A stretch of DNA of 24,410 nucleotides. Source: a virus. Below the pieces are notes generated by a model. The model ran no database searches and was not told the origin of the DNA. It worked only from the letters and a program-made list of their open reading frames with translations. The position numbers and the translations under genes are program-made. Of this stretch, positions 12,999-23,645 are shown one piece after another. Location: positions 1 through 24,410 of IMG/VR virus record IMGVR_UViG_3300031659_000092; one strand, written 5' to 3'. Position 1 is the stretch's first letter. Every line of letters starts with the position of its first letter.

Positions 12999-13010
12999 TA
13001 TTATATAGAG
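12999..13010 (-). promoter_or_regulatory. CTCTATATAATA promoter of the gp55 unit
   Basis: CTCTATATAATA lies 15 bases before the gp55-like ATG and is followed by CTAAACAAATTAAAC. Identical 12-mers are at 20539-20550 and 22576-22587, each shortly before the first gene of a replication unit. The element contains a TATAAT-like -10 box. Confidence 0.65.
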
Positions 13011-20538: not shown

Positions 20539-20550
20539 TATTATATAGAG
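20539..20550 (-). promoter_or_regulatory. CTCTATATAATA promoter of the uvsX-gp41-gp47-gp46 operon
   Basis: Exact CTCTATATAATA followed by CCAAATAAAAAATACT and the ATG of the 72-residue gene. It lies just downstream of the terminator of the polymerase unit (20572-20599), so it begins a fresh transcription unit. Confidence 0.65.
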
Positions 20551-20571
20551 AAATACACAATTGTTTAAAAT

Positions 20572-20599
20572 AAAAAAACCAGGAAATTAATCCTGGTTT
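20572..20599 (-). terminator. Rho-independent terminator after the polymerase half gene
   Basis: The minus strand has AAACCAGGA pairing with TCCTGGTTT around a six-base loop, followed by a run of seven T. It begins a few bases after the polymerase stop codon (20603) and closes the clamp-polymerase unit. Confidence 0.9.
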
Positions 20600-20602
20600 A
20601 TT

Positions 20603-21796
20603 TTAAAATAATGAAGTTGAATATATTAAGTTTCTATTTAATGTTTGAAGACCTAATACGATAAGTATTCTATTAATAGGATCGATAACACTTTTTTCAA
20701 ATTGAAGTTCAAAATCGACTTCTGGTGCAAATTCATATGGATGTTCTCCAGCTTGAAACGCGAACATAGGACTTGTCTTATGTTTACAATGATAAATCTT
20801 TAGCTTTTCACCATTACCATTTAATTGATATTTTGATTTATATTTCTTATTGTTATTTAATAAGAAGTTATAAAAACCTGCAGCTCTTACATTTGCTGGA
20901 CATTTAGTACCTAATTGAAATTCATCAGTATCATCAATTACATACTTATCTATATTATTAGTTCTTCTATTAAAGCAAATATGGTCAATATCACTTAACT
21001 TAAATTCTTTCTTTGACTGTTTTAAGAACTCTACTAACTTTGCGATCGTAGCAGCTGTTGGTTTTTCAGATAATAATATCTCTACTGCTTTTGTTAATTG
21101 TTTTCTTGCGACGGTCGGTGTAGAACTTTGGATAATATCAAAACCAGTAGTCTTAATCTTACTTAATGATTCAAATCTATCGTCTTCTTCTAGCATATCA
21201 AACCATGCTATATTCTGTAGATACTTTTTCTTAGATAACCAAATACCACTATATGAAATAGTTTCGAGGTCAAAGAATAAATGGTTTTTGGTATTCAAGT
21301 CTGTTGAATATTTCTCCATTGAACTTTGAATAAAACCAGTTAACCTAATTTTATAAAGCTGCATAATAAACTGGTCAATAGAAAGTTTTTCGCCTAACCA
21401 TTCAATAGATTCATACATCTCCTCAAACTGAACGTAACATGAATCCGTATCAATATAAATTACAGATGGCTTTTTTACTTGTACCACTTTAATATTAAAA
21501 TGATCGTGTACCTTAGTATCCTTATGCCATAATTTATTGAAGTATAGATTTAATCGCTCTTCAGAATATAGAATTGCTCCTTGTCCTTGTAACGTAATCG
21601 ACTCTGCAATATCAATATTAAAGAAATGAAACCACTTGTTACCAAATGCACCATAAATCGAGTTAAGCGTAACTTTTACTGCCTGTTCATATGCTGTAAA
21701 TTTCTTTGATAGAGTATCATAGTGTTCTTTTAATGTTAAAGCCTCTTCTTTTGTAAGAGAACTTACATCCTTTTCAATTAAGGCATCAATATTCAT
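20603..21796 (-). CDS. gp43: DNA polymerase gp43, C-terminal half (split family B polymerase)
   Basis: The 397-residue protein holds the back half of a family B polymerase: motif B KVTLNSIYGAFGN (41-53), motif C VIYIDTDSCYV (112-122, catalytic D116 and D118), a KKKY motif (about 190) and the thumb. T4 gp43 is about 900 residues; the exonuclease domain and motif A (DxxSLYPS) are missing, and the gene directly upstream is the clamp, so the N-terminal half must be encoded elsewhere. The ATG is three bases after the clamp stop. The C terminus NLIYSTSLF recalls the clamp-binding tail of T4/RB69 gp43. It is intact with no frameshift. Confidence 0.93.
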   Translation of the reverse strand: MNIDALIEKDVSSLTKEEALTLKEHYDTLSKKFTAYEQAVKVTLNSIYGAFGNKWFHFFNIDIAESITLQGQGAILYSEERLNLYFNKLWHKDTKVHDHFNIKVVQVKKPSVIYIDTDSCYVQFEEMYESIEWLGEKLSIDQFIMQLYKIRLTGFIQSSMEKYSTDLNTKNHLFFDLETISYSGIWLSKKKYLQNIAWFDMLEEDDRFESLSKIKTTGFDIIQSSTPTVARKQLTKAVEILLSEKPTAATIAKLVEFLKQSKKEFKLSDIDHICFNRRTNNIDKYVIDDTDEFQLGTKCPANVRAAGFYNFLLNNNKKYKSKYQLNGNGEKLKIYHCKHKTSPMFAFQAGEHPYEFAPEVDFELQFEKSVIDPINRILIVLGLQTLNRNLIYSTSLF

Positions 21797-21799
21797 AGA

Positions 21800-22552
21800 C
21801 TACGCTGTTTGGCAAGTTGCGATAGTCAATAATGTTTCTGAGTCATTAGATTTTAATACAACTCTATTACTCAAAACATGCGCAGTGTAATCTTCCTTAT
21901 CTAATAAGTTTAAATACTTTTTGAATAATGTAACGTCTCCACTTTCATCTCCGTTTGCAGTTGCAGTAACCAACATGTTGTATGTTTTACCTTTTAACCT
22001 TACTCCATCTTTCTTTCTTTTAATAGAGAATGTTTCGTCTTTGTCAATTGCAAATAAAGATTTAACTTTTGCGATACTTGAGTAATCAAACTCAAAATCA
22101 AAACTTGCACCGTCTATATTAAAGATAGAAGCAACTTGAGCATCTGATAAATCTTTGTATCCTAATGACGGCTCTGAACATGCTAATGTAATATCTAACT
22201 CATCGCTGTAAATCTTAAAACTTGATGCTACGCAATCTTCATCATTTTCAATAAATTCAAATTCACCTCTAATAGATTCTCCATCAAATTGCTTAAATGC
22301 TTCAATTAATCTAGAAGCGTCGAAGAATGCAATTTTCAAATCCTTTTCCGTTGTAATCTCACCTTCTTGAATTACAAAGATTTCTTTTAAAGGAACTCTA
22401 TTATGCTTAACTGCGTCTCTTTGTGGTAGATACGCTGAAGCTTCTACAACTCCGCCTTTAATCTTAAAATATACGAAAGAATCGATAACCTTTAATCGGT
22501 TAATAAATCCTACGAATGCTCCTTGGTTTACTTTACTAATATTTACTTTCAT
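21800..22552 (-). CDS. gp45: Sliding clamp gp45
   Basis: The 250-residue protein (T4 gp45 is 228) has the low-complexity beta-alpha layout of the clamp and no catalytic motif: IDSFVYFKIKGGVVEASAY, RGEFEFIENDEDCVASSFKIYSDELDITLACSEP, VVLKSNDSETLLTIATC. It is directly upstream of the polymerase half, as the clamp is next to other replisome genes in T4. It gives processivity to gp43 and activates late transcription through gp55 and gp33. The identification depends on fold-like pattern, length and position. Confidence 0.72.
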   Translation of the reverse strand: MKVNISKVNQGAFVGFINRLKVIDSFVYFKIKGGVVEASAYLPQRDAVKHNRVPLKEIFVIQEGEITTEKDLKIAFFDASRLIEAFKQFDGESIRGEFEFIENDEDCVASSFKIYSDELDITLACSEPSLGYKDLSDAQVASIFNIDGASFDFEFDYSSIAKVKSLFAIDKDETFSIKRKKDGVRLKGKTYNMLVTATANGDESGDVTLFKKYLNLLDKEDYTAHVLSNRVVLKSNDSETLLTIATCQTA

Positions 22553-22575: not shown

Positions 22576-22587
22576 TATTATATAGAG
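22576..22587 (-). promoter_or_regulatory. CTCTATATAATA promoter of the clamp-polymerase unit
   Basis: Exact CTCTATATAATA followed by ACAAATAACAAATTAAATAAC, 23 bases before the gp45 ATG. Same element as at 12999 and 20539. Confidence 0.65.
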
Positions 22588-22604: not shown

Positions 22605-23645
22605 TTAAAATAATTGATCTCGGTTTAAATTGTCTGCAAAGAATTGTTCCATTAAATCTCCACCAGCCCTTGCTACTCTTCTTCTTGAAATTAAATGTGG
22701 ATTTGCTCTAAGTCTATGGTATACTCCGTATTGACAAAGACCAACTTCACATCCATAAGTCTTTAATTCATTCTGTTCGTCTATTAATATTCTTTTACCG
22801 TTAACTTCCACGTTATGTGTTGATTCATGTAAAAATATATCTCCAATTAAATCAATGTAATTCTCTCTAAACCAAATGACTCTTTCACCATAAGGTATTC
22901 TGCAATCTTCACCAAATAATAGATCTAATGTTAGTCTAGCTCCTGGACCAGGTACGCAAAATCTTTCATCGTGATTAGCGTTGATAGCAGGATTCACTGA
23001 ATTTGAAGTTGCACAATGATAACCATAATACTGTCCGACTCCCTCCAGTTGTACAAGAATATCATACAGACCCTCAAGGGATTGCGCTTCTGACATTGCT
23101 TTTGTTATACCTCTTGGTATAAATGAAGCTACCCAAAGTAATATGTTTATCTTATCAGCGTTTCTTTCAACACCTCTAGATTCTGCAACATATGAATTTG
23201 CTGCTCCAAATAAACTTGTTCTAAGTTCAGTTGTTCCATATATTGGAAGTCCTAAGTCTACTGCATCTTTTAAATTCTTACGAATTACATCTTCATAGTC
23301 TCTATCAATCAAAAGTCTTTCAAAATCTACAAGTGCAGTTTTTGGATTAGGATCTCTTGTTAATACTTGATGAATACCTCTACCTCCGTAAAAGTGAGAT
23401 ATTATAGTATTGCAAATAATATTGTTTTGACTTAATCCTGAGGTAACAATGTTTTCCATTATATAGACCATCCTATCGTCTAATACAATTGCTGGATGAA
23501 AGTATTCAACATCGGCACCTAACGCAATATCTCCACCGTCATCATACTCATCATAAACACCTCTAGACCATAAAGCTCTATCGTTAATCTTATTGAAGAA
23601 TTGACCAACATCTCTTATCAATTCCATGTCTACTTGGTCTATCAT
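22605..23645 (-). CDS. HhH DNA-glycosylase-fold protein, possibly thymine pyrophosphorylase-like (base hypermodification)
   Basis: The 346-residue protein has an HhH segment QLEGVGQYYGYHC (about 197-209), then VPGPGARLTLDLLFG (about 229-243), then EVGLCQYGVYHRLRANP (about 302-318). This order resembles the alpha-glutamyl/putrescinyl thymine pyrophosphorylase clade 2 proteins as I recall them: L-x-G-(I/V)-G-x-(F/Y), PGPGA and (E/C)xx(L)CxxxKYxR. Those enzymes act in making hypermodified thymine in phage DNA. The N terminus reads FFNKINDRALWSRG. The identification is by motif order, not by a search. The gene overlaps the micro-ORF by four bases and starts with an SD-like AAGGAG. Confidence 0.5.
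   Translation of the reverse strand: MIDQVDMELIRDVGQFFNKINDRALWSRGVYDEYDDGGDIALGADVEYFHPAIVLDDRMVYIMENIVTSGLSQNNIICNTIISHFYGGRGIHQVLTRDPNPKTALVDFERLLIDRDYEDVIRKNLKDAVDLGLPIYGTTELRTSLFGAANSYVAESRGVERNADKINILLWVASFIPRGITKAMSEAQSLEGLYDILVQLEGVGQYYGYHCATSNSVNPAINANHDERFCVPGPGARLTLDLLFGEDCRIPYGERVIWFRENYIDLIGDIFLHESTHNVEVNGKRILIDEQNELKTYGCEVGLCQYGVYHRLRANPHLISRRRVARAGGDLMEQFFADNLNRDQLF

What the first reader, a model, noticed from the sequence alone, without database searches (positions are those of the whole stretch)
20603..21796. DNA polymerase split between motifs A and B
Seen: a complete open frame begins in the fingers region about 40 residues before motif B and carries motif C and thumb, but no exonuclease domain and no motif A; its ATG is three bases after the clamp stop, so nothing upstream can supply them. 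Established: gp43 of T4 is one chain of about 900 residues, while some Aeromonas T4-like phages and, as I recall, Rhodothermus phage RM378 have divided polymerases. Inference: a natural two-subunit polymerase with the N-terminal half elsewhere in this genome, perhaps a product of a past homing endonuclease.
Basis: partly seen in the sequence, partly recalled or inferred. Interest (0 to 1): 0.75.

Follow-up and report, generated by a model that had tools for sequence, protein, structure and literature searches.

The report
Phage DNA polymerase made in halves
This marine phage gene makes only the back half of a T4-type DNA-copying enzyme; in hundreds of related phages the front half is a separate gene, so the enzyme is almost certainly assembled from two proteins that share one active site.

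Summary
Confirmed. The minus-strand ORF 20603-21796 (397 aa) is the complete C-half of a T4/RB69-type family B DNA polymerase: motif B, motif C, thumb and C-terminal tail. It has no exonuclease domain and no motif A. It is under strong purifying selection (Ka/Ks about 0.05-0.11), and all 202 complete relatives are 397-405 aa, so it is neither a remnant nor an assembly error. All 30 related contigs of at least 70 kb carry a separate N-half (about 465 aa: ExoI-III, motif A, fingers helix N) and no full-length gp43. The halves tile RB69 gp43 at 105-504 and 526-817, so the break is the fingers-tip loop; catalytic and dNTP-binding residues are shared between the two proteins. The same break occurs in Aeromonas 43A/43B (reported active), Acinetobacter phages, phage PAU, Chryseobacterium phages, huge phages and Lak phages. 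A tree suggests at least three origins. RM378 breaks elsewhere. The window is a 24-kb fragment; its own N-half was not found, and near relatives lack it within about 10-11 kb upstream. The 'clamp' label is positional only. A homing-endonuclease origin is plausible but unproven. The kind is known; new is the breadth of a fixed, often unlinked split lineage, unreported in the papers searched.

The parts
20603..21796 (-). C-half of a split T4-type family B DNA polymerase (397 aa): fingers helix P, second part of palm, thumb, C-terminal tail
   Evidence: phrog_1918 4e-67; phrog_262 494-843/856; RB69 526-817, 2e-30
21677..21796 (-). N-terminal lead of about 40 residues that replaces the fingers-tip linkage; starts at about RB69 526 / T4 511
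   Evidence: alignments; low-confidence model puts a helix at residues 16-52
21650..21676 (-). motif B, KVTLNSIYG (K41, N45 = RB69 K560, N564)
   Evidence: invariant in A1
21440..21457 (-). motif C, YIDTDS (D116, D118 = RB69 D621, D623)
   Evidence: invariant in A1
20606..20635 (-). C-terminal tail (last 10 residues, ending YSTSLF), at the place of the gp43 clamp-binding (PIP) peptide
   Evidence: position and aromatic end as in T4/RB69 (PMC3012046); binding is inferred
20571..20598 (-). hairpin AACCAGGA..TCCTGGTT followed by a T run directly after the stop: probable intrinsic terminator closing the unit
   Evidence: read in the sequence; not scored
21800..22552 (-). 250-aa ORF immediately upstream, conserved next to the C-half in the marine phages, with relatives near the C-half in LR756500 and PAU (gp109); sliding clamp only by position
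   Evidence: not recognised as a clamp by Pfam, PHROGs, PDB or hhalign
22605..23645 (-). 5-hmdU DNA kinase helical-domain protein; in several relatives the N-half lies shortly downstream of this gene, here it is missing from that place

Best explanation
The gene encodes the C-terminal subunit of a natural two-subunit replicative DNA polymerase of the T4 gp43 type. The partner subunit, about 465 aa, carries the N-terminal domain, the 3'-5' exonuclease, motif A and fingers helix N, and is encoded elsewhere in the genome. The two chains associate without covalent joining. The finger is formed by helix N of one chain packing against helix P of the other. The metal-binding aspartates come from both chains (N-half D380, C-half D118) and so do the dNTP triphosphate contacts (N-half R444/K448, C-half K41/N45), so neither chain alone should polymerise. 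Shown by sequence: the complementary halves, their tiling, their conservation and the absence of full-length gp43 in relatives. Inferred: non-covalent assembly, activity, and presence of the N-half in this particular genome.
For: ORF and domain limits. N-half present in 30/30 related contigs of at least 70 kb, none with full-length gp43. In loci with both, the gap is 0.8-7.6 kb on the same strand; in L006 the order is N-half, 250-aa gene, C-half. Halves tile RB69 at 105-504 and 526-817; exonuclease D98, E100, D197, D292, motif A D380 and R444/K448 lie in the N-half, K41/N45 and D116/D118 in the C-half; roles of R482, K486, K560, D411, D623 in RB69 from PMC3564110. All 202 complete C-half ORFs are 397-405 aa (loci overlap, about 130 contigs); Ka/Ks about 0.05-0.11. 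No room for intein pieces at the break and no Rfam intron. In LR756504 the halves lie about 280 kb apart on opposite strands. Aeromonas phage 25 43A/43B co-purify and are active (PMC2988022); the related 44RR breaks at the same site.
Against: The N-half of this phage has not been seen: the record is a fragment, the four nearest relatives lack it (one contig has 11.6 kb upstream), and two scans found no N-half closer to that of L006 than about 80% over full length. AlphaFold models of the single halves are poor (pLDDT 49 and 52), so the interface is not modelled. No biochemical data exist for this lineage.
Confidence: 0.9

Rival explanations
1. The window's own lineage has lost the N-half gene; its C-half is an orphan, or it works with another, unrelated partner or replicase.
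For: WIN and L002-L005 share a rearrangement: the cassette (155-aa gene, N-half) that lies before the 250-aa gene in L006 is absent, and at least 10 kb upstream in L003 and L005 hold no N-half.
Against: The C-half is under strong purifying selection within exactly this clade (Ka 0.07-0.10, Ks 0.9-1.9), catalytic residues are kept, and only about 33 kb of a genome expected to exceed 150 kb has been seen. Relocation is simpler.
Confidence: 0.06
2. Assembly error or recent pseudogene: the clamp-position gene was joined to a truncated gp43.
For: Only that the gene start lies three bases after a neighbouring stop.
Against: Same boundary in 202 complete relatives from independent metagenomes, and a split also in isolates PAU and MA9V-2; Ka/Ks far below 1.
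Confidence: 0.01
3. The halves are rejoined, by trans-splicing of RNA or by a split intein at the finger break.
For: Gene-breaking inteins do occur in this enzyme in relatives, but at motif C (LR756500, Lak); an Acinetobacter relative is annotated as intron-interrupted.
Against: The halves have fixed lengths with no extra sequence at the break, three bases separate the C-half from the gene before it, no Rfam intron was found in any of 12 sources, and the halves are on opposite strands in LR756504 (33).
Confidence: 0.03

Closest known systems
gp43A/gp43B of Aeromonas phages 44RR2.8t and 25 (Straboviridae; PMC2988022, citing Petrov 2010)
   Same: T4-type PolB cut at the same fingers-tip site (44RR: phrog_262 5-497 and 497-853); two free-standing ORFs; phage 25 halves reported to co-purify and polymerise
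   Different: In 44RR the halves are adjacent; nested within unsplit Straboviridae in the tree, so probably an independent event; distant in sequence
gp43A/gp43B of Acinetobacter Twarogvirinae (fHyAci03, with ZZ1, Acj9 named in its notes)
   Same: Same cut site, annotated 'split DNA polymerase', small ORFs between the halves
   Different: Independent origin in the tree; a relative (Mokit) is annotated as one intron-interrupted gene
Sphingomonas phage PAU gp105/gp110 and Chryseobacterium phage MA9V-2
   Same: Same cut site; halves a few kb apart on one strand; same clade in the tree; cultured phages
   Different: About 22-33% identity; annotated as two polymerases without comment; not described as a split in the papers searched
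Lak and LR7565xx huge phages
   Same: Same finger cut; N-half from about 10 kb to hundreds of kb away
   Different: In LR756500 and Lak-A2 the C-half is cut again by a split intein at motif C, giving three genes
Rhodothermus phage RM378
   Same: PolB in two genes
   Different: Cut between the exonuclease (111-336) and polymerase (379-726) domains, not in the finger

Membership tests
T4-type (gp43) family B DNA polymerase | motif B KxxxNSxYG and motif C DTDS with T4-type palm and thumb | tested here: met
T4-type (gp43) family B DNA polymerase | exonuclease ExoI-III and motif A | tested here: inconclusive
   absent from the window; present in the separate N-half of 30/30 relatives
T4-type (gp43) family B DNA polymerase | single chain of about 900 residues | tested here: not met
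   397-aa ORF; no fused form in 202 complete relatives
fingers-split gp43A/gp43B | cut between fingers helix N and helix P, same site as in 44RR | tested here: met
fingers-split gp43A/gp43B | both halves encoded by the same genome | tested here: inconclusive
   shown for relatives; the window record is a fragment
fingers-split gp43A/gp43B | halves associate into an active polymerase | not testable with these tools
   reported for Aeromonas phage 25 only (PMC2988022)
RM378-type split PolB | cut between exonuclease and polymerase domains | tested here: not met
split-intein ('fractured') polymerase gene | intein N and C parts at the gene ends | tested here: not met
   no extra residues at either end in the marine clade; intein parts occur only at motif C in LR756500/Lak

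The most novel reading that the evidence does not exclude
A very large lineage of marine and gut phages, probably of Bacteroidota, has long replicated with an obligately two-subunit PolB whose active site is shared between often unlinked genes. The finger tip is a recurrent site at which replicative PolB can be cut. In the window's clade the partner gene has moved, so the subunits may be regulated or exchanged separately.
Probability: 0.35. Interest if true: 0.65.

Novelty: new variant of a known kind. Interest (0 to 1): 0.5.

Why it matters
Replicative polymerases are normally one chain, and the finger must swing to close on the nucleotide. Here the cut lies in that moving part, and catalytic and nucleotide-binding residues sit on different proteins. 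The cut is fixed across a broad, abundant phage lineage and appears to have arisen independently at the same site in Aeromonas and Acinetobacter phages. That makes questions testable: why this site, how two chains close a finger together, and whether phages control replication by supplying the halves separately. It also warns annotators that 'partial' PolB genes in these genomes are complete subunits.

Tried and rejected
Two scans for an N-half of the window's own clade found only L006. Two scans of bacterial and archaeal genomes for host clues found no relatives. AlphaFold of each half gave low confidence, so no fold search was run on them; the complex could not be modelled. RNA-level splicing was tested with Rfam on 12 sources, no hit. 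Confirming the 250-aa neighbour as a clamp failed. RM378 as the same split was rejected. Paper searches for a description of this split in PAU-like, huge or Lak phages found none; a survey of PolB families (PMC7544198) and a jumbo-phage survey (PMC7824862) do not mention it in the passages found, but the library lacks most subscription papers, including Petrov 2010 itself.

Full report
OBSERVATION. The minus-strand ORF 20603-21796 reads ATG to TAA, 397 aa, three bases after the stop of a 250-aa ORF. It matches phrog_1918, a family of 382-position 'DNA polymerase' proteins, over almost its whole length (4e-67), and the full-length T4-type family phrog_262 only at positions 494-843 of 856. Motif B (K41..N45..Y48-G49) and motif C (Y114-IDTDS) are present; exonuclease and motif A are not. 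The held record is the 24,410-bp window itself, and it holds no other PolB piece. The gene sits in a T4-like replication and head region: UvsX, DnaB-type helicase, SbcC/SbcD-like proteins, gp44-type clamp loader, gp20 portal, gp23 capsid.

RELATIVES. IMG/VR holds at least 576 relatives. Five contigs are near (85-89%); most others kept are 58-72%. In 205 fetched loci (about 130 distinct contigs, many of them near-identical strains) 202 C-half ORFs are complete, all 397-405 aa; none is fused to an N-terminal part and no stop-to-stop frame exceeds 420 aa. Against the near relatives Ka is 0.07-0.10 and Ks 0.9-1.9. This rules out a remnant or an assembly artefact.

THE MISSING HALF. Searching the whole related records with phrog_262 gave two separate pieces in every marine-type contig of at least 70 kb (18, 12): an N-half of about 465 aa (profile to about 498) and the C-half (from about 490), with no full-length gene. 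The N-half is 0.8-7.6 kb upstream on the same strand. In L006, an 85% relative of the window, the order is N-half, 250-aa gene, C-half, with only that gene between them. In most others the ribonucleotide reductase genes and further genes lie between.

WHERE THE CUT LIES. Profiles of the two halves match RB69 gp43 at 105-504 (2e-63) and 526-817 (2e-30): they tile it with no overlap, leaving only the finger-tip loop. The RB69 fingers are residues 472-571 (PMC3012046). ExoI D98/E100, ExoII D197, ExoIII D292, motif A D380 and helix-N R444/K448 (RB69 R482/K486) lie in the N-half. K41/N45 (RB69 K560/N564) and D116/D118 (RB69 D621/D623) lie in the C-half. In RB69 these residues bind the catalytic metals and the triphosphate of the incoming nucleotide (PMC3564110). 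It follows, as inference, that neither chain can polymerise alone. Low-confidence AlphaFold models end the N-half in a long helix (432-467) and begin the C-half with one (16-52); they are too poor to use further.

HOW IT WORKS. Best explanation: the two chains assemble non-covalently, helix N of one packing against helix P of the other. Splicing is unlikely: the halves carry no extra residues at the cut, three bases separate the C-half from the gene before it, Rfam found no intron in 12 sources, and in huge phage LR756504 the halves are about 280 kb apart on opposite strands. In Aeromonas phage 25 the split 43A and 43B proteins co-purify and polymerise (PMC2988022 citing Petrov 2010).

DISTRIBUTION AND ORIGIN. 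The same cut occurs in Aeromonas 44RR (5-497 / 497-853), Acinetobacter fHyAci03, Sphingomonas phage PAU (gp105/gp110), Chryseobacterium phage MA9V-2, huge phages LR756500-LR756504 and Lak phages. RM378 is cut elsewhere, between exonuclease and polymerase domains. A 20-taxon tree of both halves (IQ-TREE, LG+F+G4) separates the marine, PAU, MA9V-2, huge-phage and Lak sequences, all split, from T4, RB69, Vibrio phage, cyanophage and Vi01 polymerases with ultrafast bootstrap 100 on the dividing branch of the unrooted tree, and places 44RR and fHyAci03 at two different points among unsplit Straboviridae. This suggests at least three origins of the same cut; sampling is small and the rooting is weak. 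A homing endonuclease as cause is possible: in LR756500 an ORF with DUF7487 and a weak MTES_1575 nuclease match (below its cut-off) overlaps the end of the N-half, and a TnpB-family gene lies before the C-half in MA9V-2. Neither shows causation.

LIMITS. The window's own N-half was not found. In WIN and L002-L005 the gene pair that precedes the 250-aa gene in L006 (155-aa gene and N-half) is absent; the L003 contig has 11.6 kb upstream without an N-half, and the window about 20 kb downstream. Two scans found no other close N-half. Relocation is likely, loss is possible. The 'clamp' label of 21800-22552 was not confirmed by any sequence method. A Bacteroidota host is inferred only from the hosts of Chryseobacterium and Lak phages; no relative was found in bacterial genomes.

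VERDICT. The kind (finger-split gp43) is known; a broad, fixed and often unlinked lineage of it appears not to be described in the papers I could search.

Noticed in passing
L217:1471-2412, L224:1156-1926 (LR756500.1); L221 (Lak-A2): The C-half is cut a second time by a split intein at motif C (YIDTD|S): one gene ends in intein N-terminal blocks, another starts with a C-intein (..FIANDILVHN|S). With the finger cut this makes a three-gene polymerase.
   Followed up: partly
L203:1-1498 (LR756500.1): A 499-aa ORF with DUF7487 and a weak MTES_1575-type nuclease match overlaps the end of the N-half gene, at the finger cut; candidate homing endonuclease.
   Followed up: partly
window 22605-23645: A 5-hydroxymethyl-dU DNA kinase helical-domain protein beside the replication genes suggests hypermodified DNA in this phage.
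   Followed up: no
G013, G015, G016, G003-G008, G026 and others: Large relatives also carry a stand-alone 205-269-aa exonuclease-like gene matching gp43 exonuclease positions about 85-229, far from both halves; perhaps DexA-like.
   Followed up: no
window 12999-13010, 20539-20550, 22576-22587 (minus strand): CTCTATATAATA occurs exactly three times, each a short way before a gene start on the minus strand; possible phage promoter motif. At two mismatches it is no more frequent than chance.
   Followed up: partly
G028:C1:127218-128484: The N-half in this 212-kb contig lies in two overlapping frames (profile 93-160 and 145-519): frameshift or sequencing error.
   Followed up: no
L310 (Acinetobacter phage Mokit): The submitter annotated the two polymerase parts as one intron-interrupted gene with several ORFs in the 'intron'; no Rfam intron is found there, so it is probably a split gene as in fHyAci03.
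   Followed up: partly
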